From Hymenobacter sp. DG25A (lineage in GTDB: Bacteria > Bacteroidota > Bacteroidia > Cytophagales > Hymenobacteraceae), in contig NZ_CP012623.1 of NCBI RefSeq assembly GCF_001280305.1, forward strand, positions 1,054,001 to 1,118,000: DNA of 64,000 nt. The letters are read 5' to 3'. The first letter of the stretch is position 1, and the number at the start of each line of letters is the position of its first letter. Shown here piece by piece: positions 23,989 to 38,229 of this stretch. The notes beneath the pieces were generated by a model. That model saw only the letters and a list, made by a program, of their open reading frames with translations. It was not told the DNA's origin and made no database searches. Position numbers and translations under genes: made by a program.

Positions 23989-25452
23989 TTACTGTCCAAA
24001 GAATGCCTTCAGCATAGTGGCGTCGCGGTGGTAGATGTCGGGGTAAAAGCGCAGCTGGCCCTGCTCGGCGGCGCAGGTCAGGTAGCGCACGTGGATAGGC
24101 ATGGAGCGCCGCAGCCAGATGTCTTTGGATGTATTCTGGCGCGCACACTCACTTTCTGATGGCAGGCGCACGGACTTGCCGTCGCGGCGTAGGAGGTAGG
24201 CGGCCAACTGCATGGGCTGCGCCAGCCGGATGCAGCCGTGGCTGAGCGCCCGCACCGGCAAGGTAAACGCTTCACGCATGGGCGTATCATGCAAGTAAAT
24301 GGAATAAGGACTTGGAAAGCGAAACACGATGTTGCCCAGTGCATTATCACAGCCCGCCGACTGCCGGATGGTATACGGGAAATTTTGGGCCGATACCCGA
24401 TGCCAATTCACCCGGTAGGGGTTGACGGGCGTGCCCTGGCGGGTGTAAATGCTGTAGTTGTTGTTGACGAAGGAGGCGGGGTTTCGGCGCAGCATCGGCA
24501 GCAGCTCCTTGGTAGCAATGGAGTTGGGCACGTGCCAGTCGGGGGCAAGGGTGAAGTACGTGATGCGGCTGCTGAGCGTGGGGGAGGGCGTAACAGGCTT
24601 GCCTACAATAACCTTATGGCGCTGCCGAAGGCTGTCCTGCCGCACCAGATACAGCTCATAGGCCGGCAGATTAATCAGCACGTACTCAGAGTCGGGGAAG
24701 GTGCCCCAGCGCCAGCGCTCCAAATTAATTGCTGCCTGCCGGAACTGGCTTTGTTGGAGCGCCGCCGAATCCGGATTTGAGGAAACCGGGCGCCGCAGCC
24801 AGGCCTGTAGGGCCCGCTGCAGCTGCCGGTACTCCCGGTTGCGGGGCTGGCAGGCTGCTACCACTTCCCGCACCTTCTGATTCTGTACCCCCTGGCGCAA
24901 TAGATCCGCTACCGGCAGGGCTTTTTTAGCGGCTTTTTCCCGGGCCGAAAGCGTGTAGGGATGCAGCTTGCCGCGGTGCAGGTCGCGCATCAGGTGCAGC
25001 AGGGCATCGGTGAGATAAAGCTCCAGACGGGCCTGCTGGCGGGCGGTGCTGTGGCGGGCCAACGAATCGCGCAGGGCCTGCAGCCGGGGCCAGTGGTAGT
25101 CGGTGCGGAGCAGGCCAAAGTCATCGGCGTGGGCCAGGAGCTGCAGGGCCGGACGGGCCGGCGGGGCCAGGCTGTCGGCAGGAAGAGTCCAGGCGGGTTG
25201 GGCATCGGCGTAAAAGAGGCGCACGTCCGGGCCGGCCAGCAGGTGCAGGCGGGCATCGGCGGCCGTGGCGCTGCCGGCGGCCGTGGTATCCAGCAGGGCC
25301 TGAATGTAGGGCCCAATCGGCTCGGGCTGCTGGGCGTGGGCGGAAGCAGCGGCCTCTGTAGTGGCTGCTGGCTGCCCCTGGGTGCCTGGTGATGAGGAAC
25401 ACAGGCGCAGAGTCAGCAGTAACCCCAGCAGGCAAAAAAACAGATACCGCAT
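23989..25452 (-). CDS. L,D-transpeptidase (YcbB/YkuD family)
   Basis: The 487-residue periplasmic enzyme has an N-terminal hydrophobic segment (residues 3-17), a helical region (about 45-215) and a YkuD catalytic domain (about 255-420). The active-site motif SHGCIRL is at 404-410, with Cys407 as nucleophile. Enzymes of this type form 3-3 cross-links in peptidoglycan or attach proteins to it, and are important under wall stress. The start codon shares one base with the stop of the P-type ATPase gene (TGATG), so the two are co-translated. It is the last gene of a four-gene operon starting at 30333. Confidence 0.9.
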   Translation of the reverse strand: MRYLFFCLLGLLLTLRLCSSSPGTQGQPAATTEAAASAHAQQPEPIGPYIQALLDTTAAGSATAADARLHLLAGPDVRLFYADAQPAWTLPADSLAPPARPALQLLAHADDFGLLRTDYHWPRLQALRDSLARHSTARQQARLELYLTDALLHLMRDLHRGKLHPYTLSAREKAAKKALPVADLLRQGVQNQKVREVVAACQPRNREYRQLQRALQAWLRRPVSSNPDSAALQQSQFRQAAINLERWRWGTFPDSEYVLINLPAYELYLVRQDSLRQRHKVIVGKPVTPSPTLSSRITYFTLAPDWHVPNSIATKELLPMLRRNPASFVNNNYSIYTRQGTPVNPYRVNWHRVSAQNFPYTIRQSAGCDNALGNIVFRFPSPYSIYLHDTPMREAFTLPVRALSHGCIRLAQPMQLAAYLLRRDGKSVRLPSESECARQNTSKDIWLRRSMPIHVRYLTCAAEQGQLRFYPDIYHRDATMLKAFFGQ

Positions 25453-28142
25453 CAGGAGGAAGTTGCTTTATCCGGATTGGCGGGCTTGGCCAGCGCCAGA
25501 AGGCCATACCCCAGCCGCACCAGCAGCACGGGGATAAGGCCGGCGGCTACAATCAGCCCAACAATCAGGGGGGTGAAGGGCTGCACGGCCAGCAGCCGCC
25601 GCAACGCCGGCACGTAATAAGAGGCCGCAAACAGGGCCATGCATATGCCTAGGGCCAGCCAGATATATGGGTTGCGGGTGACCTCAGACCGGAAAAAGCT
25701 GCGGGGGTCAGTAGAAAAGTTGAACACGTGCAGCAGCTGGCCCAGGGCCATGCTATAAAACATAATATTGTTGCACACCGCCGGCGAAAGCCCGAGCACC
25801 TCCCAGCTGTAGTAATATACAGCCACCGGGCCCAGCATAAGGGCTGCGGCATACAACAGGCCGGTTTTCCAGTCGGTGCTGGTGAGCAGGGGCAGTTGGG
25901 TGGGGCGCGGAGGCTGCTGCATGAGGTGGGGGTGGCCCGTGCCCACGGCCAGCGCAAGCGCCGGAAACACATCCGTAATCATATTCAGAAACAGAATTTG
26001 CAGGGGCAGCAGCGGCACCGACTTATGCAGCAGCCCCACGCCCGTCACCAGCAGAATTTCGCTCAGGTTGCAGGAAGTCAGGTACAGAATGAAGGTGCGG
26101 ATGTTGGCGAAAATAACGCGCCCCTGCCCAATGGCCGCCACTATGGAGGCAAAGGCATCATCCTGCAGCACCATATCCGCAGCCTCCCCGGCTACCTGCG
26201 TGCCGCGCAGGCCCATGGCAATGCCAATATCTGCTTTGCGCAGGGCGGGGGCATCATTTACCCCGTCGCCGGTCATGCCCACAATATCGCCACGCTGCTG
26301 GTACAGCGTAATCAAATCCAGCTTTTGGGCCGGGCTGACGCGGGCAAATATGGTGCACTCATACAACTCCTCTTTTTCGTCCGTAGTCAGCTGGTCAAGG
26401 GGTTTCAGGGTGGGGCCACTTACAACAACGGGCTCTTCTGTGGTGACCAGCCCTACTTTGGCCGCCACCGTGCGGGCCGTGGCCGGGTGGTCGCCGGTTA
26501 CCATAATCACCCGGATGCCTGCCTGCCGGCAGGCCTGTAGCGCGGGCAGCACCTCCAGTCGGGGCGGATCCAGAAAGCCAATCAGCCCCACCCAGGCCAG
26601 GTTGTGCACAAAATCAGCGCCGGGGTGGGTTTCGCCCAGGGAACAGGCAAAGCCCAGGGTGCGCAGGCCGGTTTGGGCCAGCTGCTCCGCTCGGGCAATC
26701 CACTCCTGCTTTTCGGTTTCCGATAGGGGCAGCGGCCCGGCGGCATCCCAGCGGTAGCGGCAGTGGTTCAGAACGTCCTCGGCGGCCCCTTTCACGGCCA
26801 CAAAATACTGGCCATCCAGCTCCTGGTGCAGGGTGGCCATCAGGCGGGTTTCCGAGCTGAAGGCCTTTTCATCCAGGCGGGGGCAGGCGCTCAGCTCGGG
26901 CAGCGATGAGGAGAAGACCAGCTCATTCAGGGCAATTTCCACCGGGTCGCCCACGCCCGTTTTGGGGCGCTGCCCGGGTGCGTAGGGGGCATTGTTGCAG
27001 GAAACAGCCACGCGCAGCAGCTGCTTGAACTGGGGTGAGACGAGCACAGTCTCGTTGCCGTCGGCTACGGTCAGAGGGTGGGTTTCGGAGAAGTGCACCT
27101 CAGCACGGCCGGCCGGCAGCCAGATGGTGTTTACAGCTATCTGATTATGGGTGAGCGTGCCGGTTTTATCAGTGAAGATGACGCTGGTGCTGCCCAGCGT
27201 TTCCACTGCCGCCAGCTGCTTCACAATCACATGCTGCCGGGCCAGGCGCAGCATGCCATGCGCCAGGGCCAGCGTAGCCACAATGGAAAGGCCCTCCGGA
27301 ATGGCCGCAATAGCCAGAATAATGGCCATTTTCACCATCATTACGGCATCCCGGCCCTGCAGCAGGCCAATCAGCAGGTATAGCAGCGCCAGGCCCAGCG
27401 TAAGCAGAATGAGCTGCCGGGCCAGCTGGTTTATTTTGATTTCAAGCGGGGTAGTGGTGCGCCCGGCGGTTTGCACCAGCTGCGCAATGCGGCCCAGCTC
27501 GGTGTTCATGCCAATGCCCGTTACAATAGCGCGGCCGTTGCCATTCACCACGGCCGTGCCTTTGTAGAGCAGGCTGGTAGGGGCATCGGCTACCTGGCCG
27601 GGAGCAGGCAAGGCCCCGGGCTGCTTGGCTACCGGCATAGATTCCCCCGTCAGGGCCGATTCGTTTACGTTGAGCTGCCGGGCTATGTGTACCTCGGCAT
27701 CGGCGGGCAGCATGTCGCCGGCTTCTACCAGCAGCACATCCCCAATGGTGAGGTCAGGGGCGGGAATGGTTTGCTGCTGCCCGTTGCGCACTACGCGGGC
27801 TTTGGGTACGTCCAGCTGGTGCAGCGCCGCCATCGAAACCCGGGCCTGCCACTCCAGCCCCAGCCCGATAAGGGAATTGATGAGCACGACGGCTGCAATA
27901 GCTATGCTCTCAGCCATGTCGCCCATCACCCAGGAAAATATGGCCGCGGCAATGAGCACCAGCACCGTCAGGCTCCGGAACTGCCGCCACACCAGCAGCC
28001 AGATGGGCTCATTGACGTTGGCAGACAGGATATTGGGGCCATGCAGCTGCCGCCGGCGCTGGGCCTCGGCCGTGGTCAGCCCCTGCTGTAAATCAGTGGG
28101 CGGGGGCGGGAACGAAGCCGTGGGGACGCTGGCCGGTATCAT
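25452..28142 (-). CDS. Cation-transporting P-type ATPase (P2, calcium-pump-like)
   Basis: The 896-residue pump has an N-terminal cation ATPase domain (about 15-75), the actuator motif TGES at 165-168, and the phosphorylation motif DKTGT with Asp325. TGDGVNDAPALRKADIG provides the hinge. About ten membrane helices are present, with the last six at the C-terminus. The M4 motif reads PEGLS at 282-286; calcium pumps usually have PEGLP there. It is most likely a Ca2+/Mn2+ or related cation exporter, but specificity is not certain. It lies 37 nt after the DUF1003 gene and overlaps the transpeptidase gene by 1 nt. Confidence 0.9.
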   Translation of the reverse strand: MIPASVPTASFPPPPTDLQQGLTTAEAQRRRQLHGPNILSANVNEPIWLLVWRQFRSLTVLVLIAAAIFSWVMGDMAESIAIAAVVLINSLIGLGLEWQARVSMAALHQLDVPKARVVRNGQQQTIPAPDLTIGDVLLVEAGDMLPADAEVHIARQLNVNESALTGESMPVAKQPGALPAPGQVADAPTSLLYKGTAVVNGNGRAIVTGIGMNTELGRIAQLVQTAGRTTTPLEIKINQLARQLILLTLGLALLYLLIGLLQGRDAVMMVKMAIILAIAAIPEGLSIVATLALAHGMLRLARQHVIVKQLAAVETLGSTSVIFTDKTGTLTHNQIAVNTIWLPAGRAEVHFSETHPLTVADGNETVLVSPQFKQLLRVAVSCNNAPYAPGQRPKTGVGDPVEIALNELVFSSSLPELSACPRLDEKAFSSETRLMATLHQELDGQYFVAVKGAAEDVLNHCRYRWDAAGPLPLSETEKQEWIARAEQLAQTGLRTLGFACSLGETHPGADFVHNLAWVGLIGFLDPPRLEVLPALQACRQAGIRVIMVTGDHPATARTVAAKVGLVTTEEPVVVSGPTLKPLDQLTTDEKEELYECTIFARVSPAQKLDLITLYQQRGDIVGMTGDGVNDAPALRKADIGIAMGLRGTQVAGEAADMVLQDDAFASIVAAIGQGRVIFANIRTFILYLTSCNLSEILLVTGVGLLHKSVPLLPLQILFLNMITDVFPALALAVGTGHPHLMQQPPRPTQLPLLTSTDWKTGLLYAAALMLGPVAVYYYSWEVLGLSPAVCNNIMFYSMALGQLLHVFNFSTDPRSFFRSEVTRNPYIWLALGICMALFAASYYVPALRRLLAVQPFTPLIVGLIVAAGLIPVLLVRLGYGLLALAKPANPDKATSS

Positions 28143-28179
28143 AGCATCAGAAAGAACAGAAGAAGGGCAGGAAAGGCCG

Positions 28180-28896
28180 TCAGGTTACCAGCTTAGACCC
28201 TTCTATTTTCGTCAGGATATCATTCATAATTTCTACCTGAATCTGCTGAATTTCCAGCATATCCTGCTGTTGATGCATAATCAGGTGATCCAGCTTTTCG
28301 TGCAGCATCCGGATTTCCAGCTCCGATTTCAGATTAATCATATAGTCTTTGCGGGCGCGCTGCCGGTCCTTGTCCTCCTGGCGGTTCTGGCTCATCATGA
28401 TAATGGGCGCCTGCATAGCGGCCACGCACGAGAGCAGCAGATTCAGCAGAATAAAAGGGTAGGGGTCGAAGCCGCGGTTGGCCATCCAGAAGCCGTTCAG
28501 CACAATCCAGCACAGCAGAAAAAACAGAAAGGAGAGGATAAACGTCCAGCTCCCGCCAAACGAAGCCATGCCATCGGCCAGGCGCTGGCCCAGCGTCAGG
28601 GGCTCTACGTCGTCCTCCAGCTTATCGGTGAGGGTGGCCTGGGCCTGCAGGTTGCTGAGCACGGTTTGCTCCAGCTCGGAAAGCTGGCCCACCTCTTTCA
28701 GTAGATAATTCTGGATGTACTTGCGCCGGTACTCGTTTAGCTCCGTCAGGGCCAGGTAGTCGTCCTCGGAAAAATGGGGCTGGTCCTTTTGAATAAGCTC
28801 CAGAATAGGCTGCCGTATGGTACGCCCACTGATGCGGTCGGCCTCGGGAAACTCCCGGCCGGAGCAGTCACTGATGAACGTGGGAGCAGGAGGCAT
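28180..28896 (-). CDS. DUF1003 membrane protein
   Basis: The 238-residue protein has a soluble N-terminal part (about 1-100) and two membrane helices (about 116-136 and 146-166). A basic segment (QNRQEDKDRQRARKDY) follows, then a C-terminal coiled coil (about 190-235). The order of helices and basic stretch is that of DUF1003. Function is unknown; members often occur near cation transport genes. It is the second gene of the operon headed by the beta-CASP nuclease, 39 nt after it. Confidence 0.85.
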   Translation of the reverse strand: MPPAPTFISDCSGREFPEADRISGRTIRQPILELIQKDQPHFSEDDYLALTELNEYRRKYIQNYLLKEVGQLSELEQTVLSNLQAQATLTDKLEDDVEPLTLGQRLADGMASFGGSWTFILSFLFFLLCWIVLNGFWMANRGFDPYPFILLNLLLSCVAAMQAPIIMMSQNRQEDKDRQRARKDYMINLKSELEIRMLHEKLDHLIMHQQQDMLEIQQIQVEIMNDILTKIEGSKLVT

Positions 28897-28935
28897 GGCA
28901 GAGCAACGGCTACGTTCTGGGGGCAGGAAGCGAAA

Positions 28936-30333
28936 TCAAATGCCTTCAAAAAGCGAATAGGTTTCCAGGTACCGGGGCTGAATGGGGGCCGGCCAGCCCA
29001 GCTGGTCCTGTATGCCCTGGGCCAGCGCGGCGGAGCTCAGGGGCTCCCCATGCACAATGAAAGTACGCTTGGGAGCCTGCTCAAAGTTTCCCAGCCAGCG
29101 CAGTAGTTCGTCGCGGTCGGCGTGGGCCGAGAAGCCGTTGAGCTGCTGCACCTGGCAGAGCACGGGCACCATGTCGCCGTACATCTTAATCTGCGGCTCG
29201 CCTTCCAGCAGGCGGCGGCCCCGGGTGCCCTCGGCCTGAAAGCCGATAAGCAAAACCGTATCCTGGGGGCGGGGCAGGCGGTGGTGCAGGTGGTGCACAA
29301 TGCGCCCGCCGGTGCACATGCCGCTGGCGGAAATAATGATGGCGCCCTGCTCCAGCAGATTCAGGCTCTTCGACTCGGGCACATCAGTTACAAAACGCAG
29401 CCCGTCAAAATCAAAAATATTGCCGTGGCCCAGCCGGTGCTGCCCCGGATACCGCGGGTACAGCCCCGATACCCGAATGCCCATGGGGCTATCAACATAC
29501 ACCGGCACGTGGGGCACCCGGTTTTGCTGGCGCAGGCGCTTGAGGTAATACAGCATGGTTTGGGTGCGGCCCACGGCAAAGGCCGCAATAACCAGCACCC
29601 CGCCCCGCCCCAGCGCCTGGTTTACCACGGCCGCCAGCTCTTCCTCCGGGTCCGGCACGCGGTTATTCCGGTCGCCGTAGGTGGATTCTACCAGCAGCAC
29701 ATCGGCCTGGGTAATAGCGGTGGGGTCAAACATTACGGGGTCGTCGTAGCGGCCCAGGTCGCCGGAAAATACCAGCTTTTTCTCCTGCTGCTCGCCCTGC
29801 ACCAGCGTCTCCACAATAGCCGCGCCCAGAATGTGACCCGCCTCCCGGAAGAGCACGGAAACCTGGTTGAGGGCCTGCACGGGCATATTATAGGGGCAAC
29901 TCACCAATAGGGGTAGCACCTGCTGTACGTCCTCGGTGGTGTAGAGCGGCAGCGCGGGGTGATGCTTGGAGTAGCCTTTGGCATTGGCAAAGGCGGCTTC
30001 TTCCTCCTGCAGCTTGGCGGAGTCCAGCAGCATAATTTCCAGCAGGTCGCGGGTAGCTTCGGTGCAGAGAATGCGGCCCCGGAAGCCCTCTTTTACCAGG
30101 CGGGGCAGGTAGCCGCTGTGGTCGATGTGGGCGTGGGTGAGCACCAGGGTATCCACCTGGCTGGGGCTGATGGGCAGGGTATCCCAGTTGCGGAGGCGCA
30201 GCTCCTTCAGGCCCTGGAACAGGCCGCAGTCTACCATAAGCTGCTGCTGAAGCGGGCCGTGGCTGAACGTGAGGACATACTTGGAGCCCGTTACGGTTTG
30301 GGCGGCGCCCAGGAATTGGATGCTAACGTTCAT
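28936..30333 (-). CDS. Beta-CASP metallo-beta-lactamase RNA nuclease
   Basis: The 465-residue protein begins with a metallo-beta-lactamase domain carrying the zinc motif HAHIDHSG near residue 67, then FREAGHILG and FSGDLGRYD. The beta-CASP part follows (VESTYGDRN, FAVGRTQ, SASGMCTGGRIVHH, FSAHADRDEL, VHGEP). This is the bacterial CPSF73/YSH1-like exonuclease family that degrades or processes RNA. It is the first gene of an operon divergent from the first Usp gene, sharing a 194-bp promoter region with an FNR-type box. The association with stress proteins suggests RNA turnover on entry into low-energy states, an inference. Confidence 0.9.
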   Translation of the reverse strand: MNVSIQFLGAAQTVTGSKYVLTFSHGPLQQQLMVDCGLFQGLKELRLRNWDTLPISPSQVDTLVLTHAHIDHSGYLPRLVKEGFRGRILCTEATRDLLEIMLLDSAKLQEEEAAFANAKGYSKHHPALPLYTTEDVQQVLPLLVSCPYNMPVQALNQVSVLFREAGHILGAAIVETLVQGEQQEKKLVFSGDLGRYDDPVMFDPTAITQADVLLVESTYGDRNNRVPDPEEELAAVVNQALGRGGVLVIAAFAVGRTQTMLYYLKRLRQQNRVPHVPVYVDSPMGIRVSGLYPRYPGQHRLGHGNIFDFDGLRFVTDVPESKSLNLLEQGAIIISASGMCTGGRIVHHLHHRLPRPQDTVLLIGFQAEGTRGRRLLEGEPQIKMYGDMVPVLCQVQQLNGFSAHADRDELLRWLGNFEQAPKRTFIVHGEPLSSAALAQGIQDQLGWPAPIQPRYLETYSLFEGI

Positions 30334-30438
30334 AGCGGCTGGTTATGGGCCCCTGGCTAACCTGTCCGCCACTGCCCGCAGGCCGGCGTCAGCTAAGGTG
30401 GCCGCCGGAAGGTAAGCAGTGGGGGAGGGGAATTTCTA

Positions 30439-30450
30439 TGATATTCATCA
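30439..30450. promoter_or_regulatory. FNR-type box between the nuclease operon and Usp1
   Basis: TGAT-ATTC-ATCA matches the core of the FNR/ANR consensus TTGAT-N4-ATCAA except for the outer T/A positions. It lies in the AT-rich divergent region, 78 nt before the Usp start and 105 nt before the nuclease start, so one site could control both. Confidence 0.55.
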
Positions 30451-30527
30451 TCATATATTAATTTGTTATCATACTGAGGGTGAAGGAAAACCTCCTTCTT
30501 TGTGTTATCATTTTCTCTCTGCTGCAT

Positions 30528-31343
30528 ATGGCTGATTCTCTGCTGGTACTAACTGATTTTTATCCGGCGGCCAACCGCGCCTTGGACTATGCCGCCAATG
30601 TGGCCAGCGCGCTGCATGCCAATCTGATTTTACTGCACGTGCGCCGCACTTCACTGCTGGATGCCGAGTTCTTTACCGGCGCGGTTTCCGGCCAGACGCA
30701 GGAGTCGGCGCGGGTGGCGCTGAGCCGGTTGGCCGAGGAGCTGCCGGTGCCCGCCGTTACGGAGGTGCGCAAGGGGCGCGTGGCAGAGGAGGTAGCCGAG
30801 GCTATTGAGCAGCACCAGCCCAGCCTGCTGGTGCTGGGCCGCCCTGATGTAGAAAATGTGCCCGAAGAGCTGGTGACCACCACCTCGCTGGAAATTCTAC
30901 GGACCAGGCCCTATCCCATGCTGGTGCTGCCGGCCCATGTGGCCACTACTGAGCGCCCGCGCCGCGTGCTGGTAGCCCTGGACGGGGACTCTTTCCAACT
31001 GGGCGACTGCAACGACCTGCTGCGCCAGCTCTTCAAGGCGCTGCACGCGGAGCTCACCGTGCTGCACATTGTCACGCAGAATGAAACCGCGGCCCGGGCC
31101 CTCAATACCTTAACCCAGACCGGCCTCACCATTGACCTGGCCCCCGTGCAAACCAAAGCCATTCGCAACCACGACCCCGCCGAGGGCATTCTGCAGGCCG
31201 CCAAACCGGAGGACTATGATATGGTGATGATGGTAGCCCGCCCGCGTAGCTTTCTGGGAAAGCTGTTTCACCGGAGCGTAACCGCGCAGGTGCTGCTGCA
31301 AAGCCCGCTTCCCGTGCTGATAGTGCCCGCTATCGAGGAGTAA
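30528..31343 (+). CDS. Tandem universal stress protein (Usp1)
   Basis: The 271-residue protein has two Usp domains (about 1-140 and 145-270). Each opens with a beta strand (SLLVLTDFYPAANRALDYAA and RRVLVALDGDSF). The C-terminal end FHRSVTAQVLLQSPLPVLIVP is shared with the three other Usp genes at 35.5-38.2 kb. The usual ATP-binding glycines (G-x2-G-x9-G-S/T) are not intact, so nucleotide binding may be altered. The start at 30528 is preferred over a GTG at 30480. It is divergent from the nuclease operon and convergent with the prs-like gene, whose stop directly abuts its own. Confidence 0.9.
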   Translation: MADSLLVLTDFYPAANRALDYAANVASALHANLILLHVRRTSLLDAEFFTGAVSGQTQESARVALSRLAEELPVPAVTEVRKGRVAEEVAEAIEQHQPSLLVLGRPDVENVPEELVTTTSLEILRTRPYPMLVLPAHVATTERPRRVLVALDGDSFQLGDCNDLLRQLFKALHAELTVLHIVTQNETAARALNTLTQTGLTIDLAPVQTKAIRNHDPAEGILQAAKPEDYDMVMMVARPRSFLGKLFHRSVTAQVLLQSPLPVLIVPAIEE

Positions 31344-32231
31344 TTACCCGGGCAGCCTGGCTAAGGCATCCGCTAATAAAGGAGCCAGATTGATGGCGTT
31401 GGAAGGATGCGGCACGGTGTTGCACGTTACCACGGGCCCGGCGCCGGCCGCCATCAGCTCCTGATAGGACGCACCCACAAACAGCGCGTGAATGCCCAGG
31501 CATACCGGGGCAGGCAGCCCGGCCCGGCGCAGGTGCTGCACGGTGGCTATCATGGTGCGCGCCGTGGAAATAATGTCATCTACCACTACCGGCGTGTGGT
31601 GCTGAAAGCGGGCTACATCCGGCGGGGCTATTTTCACGCTTCGGTCGCCGTGGCGCTGTTTGTTGAGCACGAGGAAGGGGCAACCGGCCTCCCGGGCTAT
31701 GGCCGCTACCCATTGCTTGCTTTCACTGTCGGGGCCTATTAAAACCGGCTGGGTTACTTGCATGCGTACATACTGCGCTAACGGGCCCGTGGCGTGCAGG
31801 GCCTGGGTAGGCATAGAGTAAATATCCCGCAGCTGGTGCCAGCGGTGCAGATGGGGCGCTACCGTCAGTAGGCCATCCAGAAAACCGGAAAGCAGCCGGG
31901 CAAAGTAGGCGGAGGTAATGCCTTCACCCGGCTGAAAGCGCGCATCCTGCCGCATATAGGCCAAATAAGGCGCCAGCAGATACACGCGGCGCGCCCCCAG
32001 GTCGCGGGCAGTTTCAGCCAGAAAATACAGCGGCACCAGCTGCGGATTTGGCTGCGCCAGCGTGCACACCAGCACCAGCGTGCGGCCGGCTACCGGGGTG
32101 TGCAACTGCACATAGGTTTCGCCATCGGGGAAGCTGCGCAGGGTGTAGTCGGCCAGGGAGGTGCCCAGTTGGTAGGCCAGCTCTTGGGTGAGGGCTTCGT
32201 TGCCGGGCAGAGCAAGTAGCAGCGGCCGCAT
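31344..32231 (-). CDS. Ribose-phosphate pyrophosphokinase-like protein
   Basis: The 295-residue protein has the PRPP synthetase fold. SFPDGETYVQL near residue 34 matches the N-terminal ATP loop, and PYLAYMRQDARFQPGE near 88 matches the canonical YARQDR region. VVVDDIISTARTM near 216 is the ribose-5-phosphate/PRPP loop. It is slightly shorter and more divergent than housekeeping Prs, so it is probably a specialised copy that makes or consumes PRPP. Its ATG overlaps the stop of the phosphorylase gene by one base (TAATG), so the two are made together. Confidence 0.88.
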   Translation of the reverse strand: MRPLLLALPGNEALTQELAYQLGTSLADYTLRSFPDGETYVQLHTPVAGRTLVLVCTLAQPNPQLVPLYFLAETARDLGARRVYLLAPYLAYMRQDARFQPGEGITSAYFARLLSGFLDGLLTVAPHLHRWHQLRDIYSMPTQALHATGPLAQYVRMQVTQPVLIGPDSESKQWVAAIAREAGCPFLVLNKQRHGDRSVKIAPPDVARFQHHTPVVVDDIISTARTMIATVQHLRRAGLPAPVCLGIHALFVGASYQELMAAGAGPVVTCNTVPHPSNAINLAPLLADALARLPG

Positions 32232-33769
32232 TAGTAGGCAATGATAGGTTCTGTGGAGTCGTGCAGATAGTCGCGGGCGTAGGTTAGCTCGCCGGGGCTT
32301 TCTGCATACAGCGTAAACAGCACCTGCCCGGCCTGCACCGGCTGGCGCAGCCGCACGTGCAGATCAATACCGGCGCTGGCCTTCCAGGGGGCACCGGCCA
32401 GCTTGGCCAGCGTAGCCAGGCGGCGGTTGTCAATGGTGAGCACCAGGCCCGGGCGGGTGGCTACCATATCCCAGTGCAGCGCCGCAGGCTTAGGAAAGTG
32501 CAGGCCGCCCTGGGCCTGGCAAATGTCCTGAAACTTCTGCCAGGCTTTGCCCGAGGAAAGCAGCATGGCCGCCTCCGCGGCGCCGGTGCCAGCGGCGGCG
32601 TGCCCGGTAAGCTCCAGCAGGGTGGCCGCCAGGTGCAGGGATTTTTCGCGTAGGTCCGGCGGTGCATCGGGGCTGTTCTGGAGCACGGCCAGCACGTCGC
32701 GGGCTTCCAGGGCCGGGCCAATGCCGCGCCCCACGGGCTGGCTGCCATCGGTCAGCATCACTTCTACTTTCAGCCCCACAGCCTGCCCTACCTGCCGGAA
32801 CAGGGCCACCATATCCTGCGCTTCCTCCAGGCTGCGCACCTTGGCGGTGGGGCCCACGGGTACATCAATTACCACATGGGTAGCCCCGGCGGCCACTTTC
32901 TTGGACAGCACGGAGGCCACCACCTGGGCCGGACTATCAATATCCAGGGCGCGCTCCACCCGAATCAGAATATCATCGGCGGGACTCAACTGCATGGCCC
33001 CGCCCCAGGCCAGGCAGGCGCCGTGGTGGGCTACCACGCGGCGCATCTGGCGCAGCGTCAGGTTTACGGAAGTTAGCACTTCCATGGCATCGGCGGTGCC
33101 GGCCGGCGAGGTAATGGCCCGGGAAGATGTTTTGGGCATGAGCAGCCCGGCCGCCGCCACAATAGCCACTACAATGGGCGTGGTGCGGTTGCCGGGCAGC
33201 CCGCCAATGGAATGCTTATCGGCTACGACGTGGGCCGGCCAATGCAGCTGCCGCCCGGCCGCAATCATGGCCTGCGTGAGGCCAATGGTTTCTTCGGTGG
33301 AGAAGTCGCGCACGCAGGCAGTTACAAAAGCGGCCAGCTCTACGTTGGAATACCGCTCGGCGGCAATATCACGCATAATAGCGTGGTAGTCTTCGGGCAG
33401 CAGGCGGCGGCCGTACATTTTGGCGCGCACCCGGTGCATGGTTTCCAGCGGCGGTAAGTGCATCAGGTGCACTTCGTCGCCGGGGCGGGCGTGCAGGTGC
33501 TCCCACACCACCTCCGACACGCCTACTTCGTGCGGCTCCAGCAGCGTGTTGCCGATAATGGTGTTCAGGGAGGCAATAATGGTGTGCCCGTTGGCCATCA
33601 CCTTCAGGCGCGATAGGGCCTGAAAGCCTTCCGCGTGGCATACCGGCGAATCGGAGCGCAGAAACACCACGTGCTCGTTGCGGGTATCGATGCCCATGCG
33701 GCGCAGGTGCAGCTGGTCGGAAGCGGGCTGTACCACGGGCGGTGGCAGAAGCGGAGCAGGGCTATTCAT
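32231..33769 (-). CDS. AMP phosphorylase / thymidine phosphorylase family enzyme
   Basis: The 512-residue protein has an N-terminal extension (about 20-105) like the beta-barrel domain of archaeal AMP phosphorylase. Then comes the nucleoside phosphorylase core with DKHSIGGLPGNRTTPI at 184-199 and SSRAITSPAGTADAMEVL near 225. A C-terminal phosphorylase domain ends it. True thymidine phosphorylases are about 440 residues and lack this extension. It probably splits a nucleoside monophosphate with phosphate, giving a base and ribose 1,5-bisphosphate. It overlaps its upstream neighbour by 8 nt and the PRPP-synthetase-like gene by 1 nt, forming a coupled unit. Confidence 0.88.
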   Translation of the reverse strand: MNSPAPLLPPPVVQPASDQLHLRRMGIDTRNEHVVFLRSDSPVCHAEGFQALSRLKVMANGHTIIASLNTIIGNTLLEPHEVGVSEVVWEHLHARPGDEVHLMHLPPLETMHRVRAKMYGRRLLPEDYHAIMRDIAAERYSNVELAAFVTACVRDFSTEETIGLTQAMIAAGRQLHWPAHVVADKHSIGGLPGNRTTPIVVAIVAAAGLLMPKTSSRAITSPAGTADAMEVLTSVNLTLRQMRRVVAHHGACLAWGGAMQLSPADDILIRVERALDIDSPAQVVASVLSKKVAAGATHVVIDVPVGPTAKVRSLEEAQDMVALFRQVGQAVGLKVEVMLTDGSQPVGRGIGPALEARDVLAVLQNSPDAPPDLREKSLHLAATLLELTGHAAAGTGAAEAAMLLSSGKAWQKFQDICQAQGGLHFPKPAALHWDMVATRPGLVLTIDNRRLATLAKLAGAPWKASAGIDLHVRLRQPVQAGQVLFTLYAESPGELTYARDYLHDSTEPIIAY

Positions 33770-34130
33770 AGTGCGGGAGAGTAAGCAGGGTTTCCTGGCT
33801 GAACTGGCAGAGCAGCCAGCAGAGCAGCCGCGGGTGCTCCCGGGTTAGTTTGCGGAAGCTATTCTGGCTGAGCAGCGTGAGCTGGCAGGGCTGCAGGGCC
33901 AGCACCGTGTACCGGCACCGGCTGGCCACCACATGCTCGCTGCCCAGCAGCGCCGGCGCCGAAATCACCTGGAACAGCCCCGCCGGGCTCCGGGACCAGA
34001 TACCCACCGTGCCCCGCTCCAGCCAGTACACATGGCGGGCCGGCTCGCCGGCGCGGTAAAGGCGGTGGCCGGCCGCGCAAACCAGGCGCTGCGGGTTCAT
34101 GCGTGGAAGAGGAAGCCAGGGGAGCAACAT
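33762..34130 (-). CDS. Cyclic-nucleotide-binding-fold protein without DNA-binding domain
   Basis: The 122-residue protein is a Crp-type beta-barrel (RLYRAGEPARHVYWLERGTVGIW, quoted in part: VYWLERGTVGIW) with a following helix but no helix-turn-helix. Start codons are uncertain: ATG at 34130 or 34100, or GTG at 34163. The conserved cAMP-binding motif is not complete, so the ligand is unknown. Its end overlaps the phosphorylase start by 8 nt, which implies co-translation and a role as sensor or partner of that enzyme. Two FNR-type boxes lie upstream. Confidence 0.7.
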   Translation of the reverse strand: MLLPWLPLPRMNPQRLVCAAGHRLYRAGEPARHVYWLERGTVGIWSRSPAGLFQVISAPALLGSEHVVASRCRYTVLALQPCQLTLLSQNSFRKLTREHPRLLCWLLCQFSQETLLTLPHYE

Positions 34131-34260
34131 GCGCCAGATGGGTAGGGGGCGGTGGAACTGCACCCGGAAAGGTTCTGCTCAGCAGAAACCAGCTGCTGCC
34201 CGGGCACGGCAGATATACAAACAGGGCCCTAATTTCTGCTGCTGGCGGCAACGGAAAAGC

Positions 34261-34272
34261 TGATGAATATCA
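34261..34272. promoter_or_regulatory. FNR-type box 1 upstream of the phosphorylase operon
   Basis: TGAT-GAAT-ATCA is a perfect TGAT-N4-ATCA palindrome. It lies 131 nt upstream of the ATG at 34130 and is the exact reverse complement of the core at 30439-30450. Confidence 0.6.
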
Positions 34273-34282
34273 CGCTGTAAGG

Positions 34283-34294
34283 TGATAGTTATCA
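34283..34294. promoter_or_regulatory. FNR-type box 2 upstream of the phosphorylase operon
   Basis: TGAT-AGTT-ATCA, followed by A, is a second palindrome of the same type. Its centre is 22 bp from that of box 1, about two helical turns, so two dimers could bind on the same DNA face. Confidence 0.6.
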
Positions 34295-34558
34295 ATACAT
34301 AATATATAAGGAATAAGCATCTTCGTTACACAGCACCAGCTGGTTATACCCCAAGCTTTGCCCGGCTGCTTCGGTTTGGCTGCGTGGCTAAATTGGGGTT
34401 GCCGGCCGGCGGGCTTTTACCTCTCTGGAAGTACCGCTCCATGAAAACGCCCTGTTCCCTGCGCTCCTCGCTGCCCGTACCTCATCCGGTGCGGATAGCT
34501 GTGGTTTGCCACCCGGAAAGAGGGCCATAGGAGCCTGGTAAACCTGAGGCCCGTCTGG
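34295..34558. other. Intergenic region upstream of the phosphorylase operon
   Basis: Noncoding region between the FNR-type boxes and the stop of the FNR-like regulator gene. The first 30 bases are AT-rich (AATATATAAGG). No gene or structured RNA is recognised. Confidence 0.4.
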
Positions 34559-35263
34559 TTAATCGTAGCGAGTAGAAATCTCGGCCAGGCGGGCCGGGTT
34601 CAGGATGGTAATCAGGCTGCCGCGCGCCTGCAGCACGCCTTCATCCCGAAATTCCGACACAAACCGGCTAGTAGTTTCCTTGGCCGTACCCACCAGTGAG
34701 GCCAGGTCGTCGCGGGAAATAGGAATGCTCACGGGCTCCTGGTTTTGCTGCTGATACGTGCGGGCCAGCAGGAGCAGGGCTTCGGCCAGCCGCTCCCGCA
34801 CGGGCTTGTAGGCCAGGTGCAGCATCCGCTCTTCGGCATCGCCCAGGGCTCTGGATAGCAGCTGCATGAGGGAGGTGGCAAAGCGCACATTCTGCTCAAT
34901 CAACCGGAAGAACTCCGCGCGCGGAATGCAGCACACCACCGACTCTTCCAGCGCCACCGCCGAGGCGGAGTGGCTGTTGCCGGCCAGCAGCCCCCGATAC
35001 CCCAGCAAATCACCCTCCCGGGCCAGCCGGATAATCTGCTCCTTACCATCGCCGCCCACTTTCATCACCTTAATCTTGCCCGAATGAATGCAGTACAGCC
35101 CCATTGGGCGGCCATTCTCCTGAAAAATAACCTGTCCCCGCTGATACACCTGTGCCGTTTTTACCAGGGAAAGCATCTCCAACTCCTCCGGCTGGCAGCA
35201 GGACATGGGGCAACTATGACGGCTGGGGCATTCTGGGCAGGAAGGTGGAACAAAGCGTTTCAT
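34559..35263 (-). CDS. FNR-like Crp/Fnr family transcriptional regulator
   Basis: The 234-residue protein has a Crp-type sensor barrel (about 30-125), dimer helix (about 130-155) and a winged HTH (about 170-225). Cysteines 9, 12 and 18 have the C-x2-C-x5-C spacing of E. coli FNR. Cys111 in VVCCIP aligns with FNR Cys122 in VCEIP, giving four candidate Fe-S ligands; Cys22 and Cys23 are also near. The recognition helix ETTSRF carries the E-x2-SR pattern that reads TTGAT half-sites. An oxygen-sensing role is thus well supported by sequence. It lies among the Usp and phosphorylase genes that carry matching boxes. Confidence 0.85.
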   Translation of the reverse strand: MKRFVPPSCPECPSRHSCPMSCCQPEELEMLSLVKTAQVYQRGQVIFQENGRPMGLYCIHSGKIKVMKVGGDGKEQIIRLAREGDLLGYRGLLAGNSHSASAVALEESVVCCIPRAEFFRLIEQNVRFATSLMQLLSRALGDAEERMLHLAYKPVRERLAEALLLLARTYQQQNQEPVSIPISRDDLASLVGTAKETTSRFVSEFRDEGVLQARGSLITILNPARLAEISTRYD

Positions 35264-35573
35264 AACCTAAAGCTGCAAAGGCCAACTGGGGCCCGGGAGA
35301 AACTCACAATCGATGCATGCTTTTTATAGCCAATGGCCCGAATGGAAGCGGGCGAAGAGTGTAGCGAAATTAGTGCTGGTAACCTTGCTTAATGTACAAT
35401 AAAATCAACGATATTCACAATGTTTTGTCAGGGTTTTGCCTTGGGCAGACCTTGCGCGTTGGGGCCACCTTGGGCCGGTGGCAGTGTCTGCGTTGCTTAG
35501 CCGCCGGAGCGGAGTAGCAGGGTGGTTTTATTCCGGGTTTTGCTTGCGCTTTCCTTGTTTCCTTTCCCGTGCC
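35264..35573. other. Divergent promoter region between the FNR-like gene and the Usp operon
   Basis: About 310 bp with no gene that I can support. A degenerate match to the FNR core, CGATATTCACAA at 35409-35420, lies in an AT-rich stretch 154 nt before the Usp2 start. It is too weak to call alone. Confidence 0.3.
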
Positions 35574-36398
35574 ATGAGTGCCTCCTTAGTTGTTTTAACC
35601 GATTTTCTGGCGGTATCTAACTGCGCCCTGTCGTATGCGGCCACGCTGGCCGTGCCCCTGCATGCCCACCTGGTACTGCTACACCTGCGCCACGATGGAC
35701 TGCTTTCCCCCGAGGAGTACAGCCGGCAGCACTCGCCACAGGGTGAGAAGCAGCTGGAGCAGGCCCTGGGCAAGCTGGTGAATACCCTGGCCGTGCCGGC
35801 CGAAGTAGAGATTTCCGAAGAGTTTTTGCCCGATGCCGTGACCGATACCGTGCATCATCACCACCCGCTGATGCTGGTGCTGGGCCGCCCCGGCACCGCC
35901 ACCTCGCCCACAGAGCTGATCAGCGTTACGGTAATGGACCTGCTGCGCACGGCGCCCTACCCGTTGCTGATTGTGCCCACCATGGGCTGGGAAGTACAGC
36001 CGCCCACGCACCTGCTGCTGGCGGTAGATGGGCAGGAGTTTACCCTGGGAACTCACGCCGGCGTGGTGGAAAAGCTGCGCGCGGCATTTGGAGCGCGGCT
36101 TTCCGTAGCGCACATCACCAGTCCCACCGATCCGCAGCCACCTATGTCGCGCGAAACGGTGTGGAGCGTGTGCGCCAGCGGTCTGGCCTCTGACCTTACC
36201 TCCGCCGATGTACACGAGCTGAAGTACCCATCAGTAGCGGAAGGTATTCTGCAGGCCGGCACCGAGCTGCGGGCCGATATGCTGGTCCTCATTGCCCGGC
36301 GGCACAGCCTGCTGGGAAGCCTGTTTCACCGCAGCGTAACCGCCCAGGTTATCCGGGACAGCATGTTGCCTATACTGGTGCTGCCCTCCCCGGATTAA
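35574..36398 (+). CDS. Tandem universal stress protein (Usp2)
   Basis: The 274-residue protein has two Usp domains. The first begins MSASLVVLTDFLAVSNCAL; the second begins near residue 147 (THLLLAVDGQEF). It ends FHRSVTAQVIRDSMLPILVLP. A longer frame opens at 35436, but the 46 extra residues have no Usp character and the ATG at 35574 aligns with the paralogues. It is the first of three consecutive Usp genes on the plus strand (spacings 53 and 59 nt) diverging from the FNR-like regulator gene. Confidence 0.9.
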   Translation: MSASLVVLTDFLAVSNCALSYAATLAVPLHAHLVLLHLRHDGLLSPEEYSRQHSPQGEKQLEQALGKLVNTLAVPAEVEISEEFLPDAVTDTVHHHHPLMLVLGRPGTATSPTELISVTVMDLLRTAPYPLLIVPTMGWEVQPPTHLLLAVDGQEFTLGTHAGVVEKLRAAFGARLSVAHITSPTDPQPPMSRETVWSVCASGLASDLTSADVHELKYPSVAEGILQAGTELRADMLVLIARRHSLLGSLFHRSVTAQVIRDSMLPILVLPSPD

Positions 36399-36451
36399 GC
36401 CGGCCCTGCTGCCTGCTGAATGATTATTCCTACCCTTTTTATTTCTTCGAT

Positions 36452-37273
36452 ATGGGACCTAATCTGGTAGTACTAACTGATTTTTCCGAGTCCTCGCGGC
36501 AGGCCTTGGCTTATGCAGCGGCCCTGGCGCAGCCGCTGCAAAGCAAGGTAGTGCTGCTGCATCTGTATCAGGATGTGCTGCTGGATCCGGAGTACGTCAT
36601 GATTCCGGCCGCCGCGGCCATCCGCAGCCAGCGGGAAACGCGCAACGCCCTGGAGAAGATGGCGGAAGAGCTGCCTGTGCCGGCTGCGGTGGAGCTTTCG
36701 GTGAACACCCTGGCCGAAACCCTGGCCGATGCCATTGCGCGCTACCACCCGCTGGTGCTGATATGCGGCCGCGCCGCCACCCCCGATTTCCTGGATCAGC
36801 TGCTGGGCGACCAAGCCCTGCCCGTACTGCGCCACCTGCGCTACCCGCTGCTAATGGTGCCCGAGGGCTCCCCGATGCCGGGCACGCCCACCCGCGTAGC
36901 GCTGGCCGCCGATGGTGAGCCGTTTACCTTCCGGGATAATGCCATGGATATGCACCCCCTTTGGGAGGCACTGCGCGCCACCTTTTCCGTGCTGCACGTA
37001 GAAACCGAGGAGCAGTATGACCGCGCCCGCACCGCCGTCAACTCATTGCGGCACAACCACCTAGTAAAGGATTTGTCGCCGGATAGCCTGTACACCGTGC
37101 ACCATACCAGCCCGGCCACCGGTATTCTGCAGGCCGCCGCCGATACCCAGGCCGAGCTGCTGGTTCTTATGGCCCGGGAAAGAAGCCTGCTGGGTGGCCT
37201 GTTTCACCGGAGCGTAACGGCCCAGGTGTTGCAGCGCAGCCCCGTGCCGGTATTGGTGCTGCCGGTTATGTGA
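36452..37273 (+). CDS. Tandem universal stress protein (Usp3)
   Basis: The 273-residue two-domain Usp starts MGPNLVVLTDFSESSRQAL and has the same C-terminal mark (LFHRSVTAQVLQRSPVPVLVLP, quoted in part: FHRSVTAQVLQRSPVPV). It is the second gene in the tandem set. The first domain is acidic and the middle contains a linker near residue 140 (PMPGTPTRVALAADGE). As in its paralogues, the nucleotide-binding glycines of canonical Usp are replaced around HRS. Confidence 0.9.
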   Translation: MGPNLVVLTDFSESSRQALAYAAALAQPLQSKVVLLHLYQDVLLDPEYVMIPAAAAIRSQRETRNALEKMAEELPVPAAVELSVNTLAETLADAIARYHPLVLICGRAATPDFLDQLLGDQALPVLRHLRYPLLMVPEGSPMPGTPTRVALAADGEPFTFRDNAMDMHPLWEALRATFSVLHVETEEQYDRARTAVNSLRHNHLVKDLSPDSLYTVHHTSPATGILQAAADTQAELLVLMARERSLLGGLFHRSVTAQVLQRSPVPVLVLPVM

Positions 37274-37332
37274 GCCCGAGTTCTTGCTGCCGGTCCGGCC
37301 TCCTGATGTAAGCTTCCTTCTTCTGCTCTGCC

Positions 37333-38229
37333 ATGTCCTTCACCTTCATCGTTCTCACTAACTTTTACCCGGCGGCCAACCAGGCTATGCAGTATGCAGC
37401 CGGGCTGGCGCATAAGATGCAGGCCCAGCTGGTACTGCTGCACGTAAAGCGCGCGTCCCTGTTCGACCCCTATGTGTTTGCCGGCGACAACTGGCGCCAG
37501 GCGGAGCTGGATGCCGAAGCCCCCACGGCCGAGGTGATGAGGGAGCTGGTAGACCAGCTTCCGGTGCCGGCCACAGTAGAAATGGCCACCGATCTGCTGC
37601 CCACCATGGCACAGTCCCTGATGGCGCGCTATCAGCCGGCCTTGTTTGTGCTGGGCCGCCCAACAGAAGAAGCCGCCTCCGGCGACCAGGTAAGCGGGGC
37701 CGCGCTGGATTTGCTGCGGGCCGCCCATTTCCCTTTGCTGCTGGTACCCGTTGGCAGTACGGCCACCGCGCCACCTCACCATATTATTATTGCGGCCGAT
37801 GCGGATGGCTTCCGGCTGGAAGAAAAGGGCCGCTTTGCGCAGCAGTTTCTAACGGAGCTGGGGTGCCCGGTTACCGTGGCGCACGTTTCTGAAGTAGAGG
37901 ATGATGATGCCTGTGCCGCCGCCCTGCAGGCCGTGCATAACAGCGGTCTGGTAGACCGGAATCAGCACGCGGATTTACGCTGCTTTCAGCATGCGCATGC
38001 CTCCGCCGGCATTCTGGAGGCGGCACATGCTACCCGGGCCGGGCTTATTGTGCTGCTGGCCCGGCAGCGCAGCTACTTGGGCGAGCTGTTTCATAGGAGC
38101 GTAACAGCTAAGATGTTGGAGCACAGCACAGTGCCCGTGCTGCTGTTGCCCGCCGTGGATGTTCCGGTTTCTGAGGCCACCAACGAGCGCACCGACCTGG
38201 GCGGCGAGGCGGAGGGTCTTTTGTATTAA
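37333..38229 (+). CDS. Tandem universal stress protein (Usp4)
   Basis: The 298-residue two-domain Usp begins MSFTFIVLTNFYPAANQAM, closest in its opening to Usp1 (FYPAAN). It carries FHRSVTAKMLEHSTVPVLLLP near the end and a C-terminal tail of about 20 acidic residues absent from the other three. It is the last gene of the tandem set, 78 nt before mlaE. The similarity to Usp1 suggests that the set arose by several local duplications. Confidence 0.9.
   Translation: MSFTFIVLTNFYPAANQAMQYAAGLAHKMQAQLVLLHVKRASLFDPYVFAGDNWRQAELDAEAPTAEVMRELVDQLPVPATVEMATDLLPTMAQSLMARYQPALFVLGRPTEEAASGDQVSGAALDLLRAAHFPLLLVPVGSTATAPPHHIIIAADADGFRLEEKGRFAQQFLTELGCPVTVAHVSEVEDDDACAAALQAVHNSGLVDRNQHADLRCFQHAHASAGILEAAHATRAGLIVLLARQRSYLGELFHRSVTAKMLEHSTVPVLLLPAVDVPVSEATNERTDLGGEAEGLLY

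What the first reader, a model, noticed from the sequence alone, without database searches (positions are those of the whole stretch)
30334..38229. FNR-type oxygen-response island with Usp paralogues, AMP-phosphorylase-like and PRPP-synthetase-like enzymes
Seen: an FNR-like regulator (34559-35263) has the C-x2-C-x5-C spacing plus Cys111, and E-x2-SR in the recognition helix. Three TGAT-N4-ATCA palindromes lie in two promoter regions beside it, at 30439, 34261 and 34283. Those regions serve a Usp gene, a beta-CASP nuclease operon, and the cNMP-fold/phosphorylase/PRPP operon. Known: FNR with E-SR reads TTGAT half-sites. Inference: this is a low-oxygen or dormancy island for Bacteroidota, similar to Usp islands of proteobacteria.
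Basis: partly seen in the sequence, partly recalled or inferred. Interest (0 to 1): 0.8.

Follow-up and report, generated by a model that had tools for sequence, protein, structure and literature searches.

The report
FNR-box island with AMP-phosphorylase module
In a few Hymenobacter strains, a rare set of nucleotide-recycling and stress genes lies beside an FNR-like regulator gene and carries conserved FNR-type control boxes; a similar enzyme trio is switched on by low oxygen in a distant soil bacterium, so this is probably a low-oxygen response, although oxygen sensing by this particular regulator is unproven.

Summary
Three TGAT-N4-ATCA palindromes lie exactly where stated. In the two relatives that share the island, 24 of 24 specified box positions are invariant, against 211 of 427 other noncoding positions. 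Around 21 other Hymenobacter fnr copies such boxes are 36 times denser within 1 kb of fnr than beyond, in three loci as a pair 22 bp apart, as here. A similarly named trio in Bradyrhizobium is microoxia-induced and FixK2-dependent.

Corrections: the third cysteine of the CX2CX5C motif is in 2 of 111 sequences, the window's own and a sister's; the conserved set is C9, C12, C22/C23, C111. A boxed 2-hydroxyacid dehydrogenase gene is commoner, and keeps its box, in genomes without this FNR, so another regulator can read the box. The phosphorylase is patchy (3 of 101 genus genomes) and does not nest within other Bacteroidota sampled. RuBisCO and R15P isomerase were not found, so its product's fate is open. 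The PRPP-synthetase-like partner lacks the usual loop Gly in 72 of 72. New variant of a known kind.

The parts
25452..28142 (-). P-type cation ATPase, downstream of beta-CASP and DUF1003
   Evidence: Pfam E1-E2_ATPase, Cation_ATPase_C; a homologue lies within 8 kb of the phosphorylase gene in 51 of 78 loci
28180..28896 (-). DUF1003 protein
   Evidence: Pfam PF06210
28936..30333 (-). beta-CASP / RMMBL metallo-ribonuclease-like protein
   Evidence: Pfam Beta-Casp, RMMBL, Lactamase_B; best solved relative is RNase TTHA0252, E 1.5e-73
30439..30450 (.). FNR-type box between beta-CASP and Usp1 (ATGATATTCATCAT)
   Evidence: kept in two relatives
30528..31343 (+). Usp1, two Usp domains (GTG 30480 is an alternative start)
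   Evidence: Pfam Usp
31344..32231 (-). PRPP-synthetase-like enzyme with loop DDIISTART
   Evidence: NCBIfam PRK07199 401 bits against a cut-off of 322; loop; second paralogue at G000:C1:2514015
32231..33769 (-). AMP/thymidine-phosphorylase-family enzyme
   Evidence: NCBIfam PRK04350 665.6 against 434, TIGR02645 595.5 against 434.6; TIGR03327 AMP phosphorylase 483.5 against 535; best solved relatives 4ga5 and 4ga4
33762..34163 (-). cNMP-binding fold protein without HTH, first gene of the operon
   Evidence: Pfam cNMP_binding; kept in G454 and G015
34261..34272 (.). FNR-type box, proximal, upstream of the cNMP/phosphorylase/PRS operon
   Evidence: 14 of 14 columns invariant in three genomes
34283..34294 (.). 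FNR-type box, distal, 22 bp from the first
   Evidence: conserved; same 22-bp pair beside fnr in G023, G026 and G009
34559..35263 (-). FNR-like CRP-family regulator with C9, C12, C18, C22, C23, C111 and C112
   Evidence: Pfam cNMP_binding and HTH_Crp_2; cysteine survey; model
35385..35422 (.). conserved noncoding block between fnr and Usp2, not a strict box
   Evidence: runs of 14 of 14 invariant columns in three genomes
35574..36398 (+). Usp2, two Usp domains
36452..37273 (+). Usp3, two Usp domains
37333..38229 (+). Usp4, two Usp domains

Best explanation
An FNR-type regulator beside the island binds TGAT-N4-ATCA boxes in the beta-CASP/Usp1 promoter region and, as a 22-bp-spaced pair, in front of the cNMP-fold / phosphorylase / PRPP-synthetase operon, and switches these genes on when oxygen falls. 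Shown: the boxes, their conservation, their clustering at fnr across the genus, and the gene content. Supported by analogy: low-oxygen induction, from a FixK2-dependent trio in Bradyrhizobium. Inferred: a [4Fe-4S] sensor held by C9, C12, C22 or C23, and C111, rather than by the classical CX2CX5C set. Inferred biochemistry: the RNase releases nucleotides from RNA when respiration stops, and the phosphorylase splits 5'-mononucleotides with phosphate (AMP + Pi to adenine + ribose-1,5-bisphosphate, the archaeal reaction) instead of spending ATP; how the PRPP-synthetase-like partner uses or replaces that product is not known. The phosphorylase operon probably entered this Hymenobacter clade from outside and sits beside an older regulator.
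For: 24 of 24 box positions invariant against 211 of 427 elsewhere. 13 boxes in 42,000 bp within 1 kb of fnr against 3 in 347,256 bp farther out, 21 loci from 20 other genomes, 10 loci with a box. Boxes upstream of PEP synthase in 3 of 5 genus loci (chance 0.01) and of the D-2-hydroxyacid dehydrogenase gene in 10 of 26 (chance 0.05), the window's genome included in both. Bradyrhizobium bll3117, bll3116 and bll3115 up in microoxia; bll3117 and bll3115 down in a fixK2 mutant, putative box ATGATCTGGGTCAA at -74 (table passages seen). In Pseudomonadota, 6 of 18 scored phosphorylase loci have a 9- or 10-of-10 match to TTGAT-N4-ATCAA upstream (the phylum split is my count from its rows and the titles), and four loci carry an FNR-like gene. 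PRS directly follows the phosphorylase gene in 70 of 78 loci. Of 111 sequences, 109 keep C9, 111 C12, 111 C111, and 109 have C22 or C23.
Against: C18 is in only 2 of 111 sequences, the window's own included, and G011 and G029 lost most N-terminal cysteines. By my tally, the dehydrogenase gene is in 13 of 15 genus genomes without this FNR and 9 of 21 with it, with strict boxes in 5 and 3 (from the lists), so the box has another reader. 11 of 21 fnr loci have no strict box within 1 kb. The NAPRT box is not kept: 1 of 30, the window's own. 46 non-Pseudomonadota phosphorylase loci show 3 good boxes, one of them in this island's own clade. No convincing promoter element (TAnnTTTG, recalled) near the boxes. 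PMC6515984 does not mark the Bradyrhizobium trio as FixK2 direct targets. NCBIfam Fnr scores 100.8 against a cut-off of 228. RuBisCO and R15P isomerase not found.
Confidence: 0.62

Rival explanations
1. The boxes are read mainly or jointly by another CRP-family protein, for instance the response-regulator-cNMP-HTH paralogue at G000:C1:1851084-1852136, so the island answers a phosphorelay signal and not directly oxygen.
For: The paralogue has the same cNMP and HTH domains and a recognition helix with E-x2-I-R, and a strict box lies upstream of the PAS kinase gene next to it. Boxed 2-hydroxyacid dehydrogenase genes occur in genomes without the Cys-FNR, at times within 20 kb of such a paralogue (places).
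Against: Boxes are 36-fold enriched beside fnr in other species, and the island pair lies on the 3' side of fnr, as most do there.
Confidence: 0.23
2. The regulator is a cysteine protein that senses something other than oxygen, such as NO, redox state or metal, or is not a [4Fe-4S] protein at all.
For: The classical third ligand is not conserved; two relatives have lost most N-terminal cysteines; NCBIfam Fnr cut-off not reached.
Against: Four cysteine positions including C111 are nearly invariant; 2-hydroxyacid dehydrogenase and PEP synthase targets fit oxygen limitation.
Confidence: 0.2
3. The three palindromes are chance matches.
For: 2 of 100 shuffles give three matches in the window; 31 of 47 other genomic matches examined are called inside genes.
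Against: 24 of 24 positions conserved; 36-fold clustering at fnr in other species.
Confidence: 0.03

Closest known systems
Bradyrhizobium diazoefficiens FixK2 / microoxia regulon, predicted operon bll3117-bll3116-bll3115 (PMC6515984, PMC9104804; table passages seen)
   Same: Phosphorylase-family, PRPP-synthetase and MBL metallo-hydrolase genes together, low-oxygen induced, with a putative TTGAT-like box; ppsA and a Usp in the same 2022 table
   Different: One operon there; here beta-CASP is split off behind another box. FixK2 has no Fe-S cysteine set (recalled). Orthology rests on product names, not on a sequence comparison here
Classical FNR (E. coli, A. fischeri)
   Same: Fold; C9, C12, C18 and C111 align with FNR cysteines; E-x2-S-R helix; near-identical box core (FNR box recalled)
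   Different: Third conserved cysteine of the family is ten or eleven residues after C12; curated Fnr score not reached
Archaeal AMP phosphorylase (4ga5 and 4ga4; T. kodakarensis recalled)
   Same: Closest solved relatives across residues 74-509
   Different: TIGR03327 cut-off not reached; no RuBisCO or R15P isomerase found in the genome
Flavobacterial operons with a phosphofructokinase-like, 2-hydroxyacid dehydrogenase, Usp, ATP-cone, beta-CASP, phosphorylase, PRS and P-ATPase genes (labels by BLAST to my bait set)
   Same: Same core enzymes
   Different: No strict box drawn in front of them and no Cys-FNR labelled within the part shown; several operons ran to the end of the locus and were not scored

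Membership tests
FNR (oxygen-sensing CRP family) | cNMP-fold plus Crp-type HTH | tested here: met
FNR (oxygen-sensing CRP family) | four conserved cysteines that could hold [4Fe-4S] | tested here: inconclusive
   CX2CX5C plus C111 present here, but C18 in 2 of 111; C9, C12, C22/C23, C111 conserved
FNR (oxygen-sensing CRP family) | NCBIfam Fnr model cut-off (PRK11161) | tested here: not met
   100.8 against 228 bits
FNR (oxygen-sensing CRP family) | recognition helix E-x2-S-R | tested here: met
   present here; E and R 111 of 111, S 52 of 111
FNR (oxygen-sensing CRP family) | oxygen-dependent DNA binding | not testable with these tools
   needs biochemistry
AMP phosphorylase | TIGR03327 equivalog cut-off | tested here: not met
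   483.5 against 535; broader PRK04350 and TIGR02645 met
AMP phosphorylase / RuBisCO pentose bisphosphate pathway | R15P isomerase and RuBisCO in the genome | tested here: not met
   PF00016 and TIGR00511 ring 0 of 1 genome; they ring in 5 and 9 of 14 control genomes
PRPP synthetase | family model TIGR01251 | tested here: met
   175.6 against 113 bits
PRPP synthetase | Gly before Thr at the end of the PRPP loop (DDIxxT-x-GT) | tested here: not met
   DDIISTART; 0 of 72 module proteins have Gly there; the genome's other PRS reads DDIVDTAGT
Type VII CRISPR Cas14 nuclease | NF045584 cut-off | tested here: not met
   393.3 against 800
FixK2-type low-oxygen module | sequence orthology of the trio to bll3115-3117 | not tested
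   no Bradyrhizobium sequence was compared; product names and gene order only

The most novel reading that the evidence does not exclude
Bacteria of at least two phyla carry a nucleotide-salvage module that works without RuBisCO (absent as tested in this genome): an RNase, an NMP phosphorylase, and a PRPP-synthetase subfamily whose ribose-5-phosphate loop has Arg, His or Gln in place of the usual Gly. Together they turn RNA-derived NMPs into bases and activated ribose phosphate without ATP cost during oxygen limitation. In Hymenobacter it has come under an FNR variant whose [4Fe-4S] cluster uses a new ligand spacing (C-x2-C-x9/10-C plus a distal C).
Probability: 0.27. Interest if true: 0.75.

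Novelty: new variant of a known kind. Interest (0 to 1): 0.5.

Why it matters
Among the rows listed I saw no paper on FNR control in Hymenobacter or on oxygen control of this module in Bacteroidota (open-licence library only, lists capped). The island gives a testable FNR variant with a different conserved cysteine set, an example of one enzyme module tied to FNR-type boxes in distant lineages, and a defined biochemical puzzle: what a paired NMP phosphorylase and loop-altered PRPP-synthetase-like enzyme do in a cell in which no RuBisCO was found.

Tried and rejected
Chance origin of the boxes: rejected by conservation and clustering. NAPRT as a regulon member: box not kept (1 of 30). Donor of the phosphorylase: midpoint rooting put the Hymenobacter trio with Pseudomonadota, but the tree is unrooted and the opposite split is also supported 98/88, so only 'not nested within the other sampled Bacteroidota' is claimed. 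Flavobacterial operons under the same box: not seen in those scored. RuBisCO route: RuBisCO and R15P isomerase not found. PhnN-type R15P kinase: best match 49.3 bits against a cut-off of 156, perhaps another P-loop kinase, so inconclusive. A promoter element at a fixed distance from the boxes: none convincing. The structure comparison lists CRP/FNR-family proteins in the rows shown. Two small proteins 3' of fnr in one other Hymenobacter locus have no Pfam match, and one of them no match in this genome, a search without a positive control. A first box count around the dehydrogenase, PEP synthase and NAPRT genes mis-oriented some loci and was replaced. My gene caller is crude: 2 of 80 loci had no called phosphorylase gene, 64 of 80 could be scored upstream, and some 'intergenic' sites are probably in missed genes. 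After the submission check I mended wording and counts and left the odds as they were.
Full report
WHAT IS THERE. The window is G000:C1:1054001-1118000 of a complete 3.78-Mb genome, Hymenobacter-like: the nearest named genome with the phosphorylase is Hymenobacter sp. BT730. From 25452 to 38229 lie, on the minus strand, a P-type ATPase, a DUF1003 protein and a beta-CASP nuclease; on the plus strand Usp1; on the minus strand the overlapping genes cNMP-fold protein, phosphorylase and PRPP-synthetase-like enzyme (PRS), with fnr upstream of them; and on the plus strand Usp2, Usp3 and Usp4. The three boxes are exact.

ARE THE BOXES REAL. Two relatives, G015 and G454, carry the same island with three strict boxes each at the same places. 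Across the two noncoding regions that hold boxes, 24 of 24 specified positions are invariant in all three genomes, against 211 of 427 other positions; the nominal probability of about 4e-8 treats positions as independent. In 21 other fnr loci from 20 genus genomes, strict boxes number 13 in 42,000 bp within 1 kb of fnr and 3 in 347,256 bp beyond, about 36-fold; 10 loci have at least one and 11 have none. Eight of these ten have their box or boxes 160-215 bp past the 3' end of fnr (strands), and in G023, G026 and G009 they form a pair 22 bp apart, as in the window, where the pair lies 265-298 bp past the 3' end. In many of those genomes fnr lies between 2-oxoglutarate dehydrogenase genes and lpd (Pfam tested in one locus), with two small proteins of no Pfam family next to the boxes in that locus. 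So the arrangement 'fnr, then boxes' looks older than the enzyme operon; that the operon was placed behind an existing FNR promoter is my inference.

OTHER BOXED GENES. Strict boxes lie upstream of PEP synthase (3 of 5 genus loci; chance 0.01) and of a D-2-hydroxyacid dehydrogenase resembling D-lactate dehydrogenase (10 of 26; chance 0.05; with one mismatch allowed 18 of 26, chance 1.41), but not of NAPRT (1 of 30, the window's own; with one mismatch 5 of 30, chance 1.68). These genes were picked because the window's genome has a box there, so without it the first two counts are 2 of 4 and 9 of 25.

WHO READS THE BOXES. From the lists I count 21 of 36 other genus genomes with the Cys-FNR (match E 4e-70 or better, my line). 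The dehydrogenase gene occurs in 9 of those 21 and in 13 of the 15 without, with strict boxes in 3 and 5. Another regulator must therefore use this box. A candidate is the response-regulator-cNMP-HTH paralogue, beside whose neighbouring kinase gene a strict box lies.

THE ENZYME MODULE. The full-length phosphorylase family is in 3 of 101 genus genomes and, of 395 phylum genomes, in this one, G309 and G254, with a partial match in G060; the other matches at E <= 1e-30 are about 26-34% identical and lie in the part shared with ordinary pyrimidine-nucleoside phosphorylases. A scan of named genomes confirmed 289 relatives and kept 80, many of them Flavobacteriaceae, so counts are not independent. 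Of 78 loci with a called gene, PRS follows directly in 70; within 8 kb lie PRS in 72, a P-type ATPase in 51, an ATP-cone protein in 49, beta-CASP in 48, Usp in 34 and the dehydrogenase in 24. The ATP-cone protein, tested in one locus, also matches Mrr_cat. A maximum-likelihood tree places the Hymenobacter trio on a long branch between Pseudomonadota and the other Bacteroidota. All 72 PRS sequences examined have R, H, Q or another residue where the genome's other PRS has Gly before the loop Thr.

LOW OXYGEN. In Bradyrhizobium diazoefficiens, bll3117 (thymidine phosphorylase family), bll3116 (ribose-phosphate pyrophosphokinase) and bll3115 (MBL fold) are higher in microoxia as protein and transcript (PMC6515984, table passages); that table does not mark them as FixK2 direct targets. 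bll3117 and bll3115 fall 6.6- and 30.6-fold in a fixK2 mutant, with a putative box ATGATCTGGGTCAA at -74 and predicted operon bll3117-3116-3115 (PMC9104804, table passages). The 2022 table also holds ppsA, a Usp, phosphoketolase and acetate kinase. Of 18 scored Pseudomonadota phosphorylase loci here, 6 have a 9- or 10-of-10 FNR-type match upstream; of 46 others 3 do; overall 9 of 64 against 2.09 expected. FNR-like genes lie in four of the Pseudomonadota loci; the two tested score 228.3 and 226.8 against the Fnr cut-off of 228.

METABOLISM. RuBisCO and R15P isomerase were not found in the genome, while both models ring in control genomes. The archaeal onward route is therefore absent as far as these models show. 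A PhnN-type kinase gave only a weak match. What happens to ribose-1,5-bisphosphate, if it is made at all, is open.

JUDGEMENT. Its cysteine argument and its generality are not. The regulatory pattern is of a known kind; the cysteine set, the split operon and the PRS loop make it a variant worth testing.

Noticed in passing
35385-35422: A conserved noncoding block between fnr and Usp2, with invariant runs in three genomes; it is not a strict FNR-type palindrome.
   Followed up: partly
L057 (G000:C1:1850578-1853727): A BLUF blue-light sensor gene lies beside the response-regulator-CRP paralogue and its PAS kinase; a strict box lies upstream of the kinase gene.
   Followed up: partly
L142:12225-13067, L141:11953-12822: An ATP-cone protein (Mrr nuclease domain in the one tested) recurs next to beta-CASP and the phosphorylase in many Bacteroidota; a possible energy-state-gated nuclease.
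   Followed up: partly
31344-32231: The module PRS has DDIISTART where the genome's other PRS has DDIVDTAGT; 0 of 72 module relatives keep the Gly.
   Followed up: partly
L086, L088: In G011 and G029 the fnr orthologue has lost most N-terminal cysteines but keeps C111, beside an L,D-transpeptidase homologue and, in L088, a Usp.
   Followed up: no
33762-34163: A cNMP-fold protein without an HTH heads the phosphorylase operon; its role is unknown.
   Followed up: no
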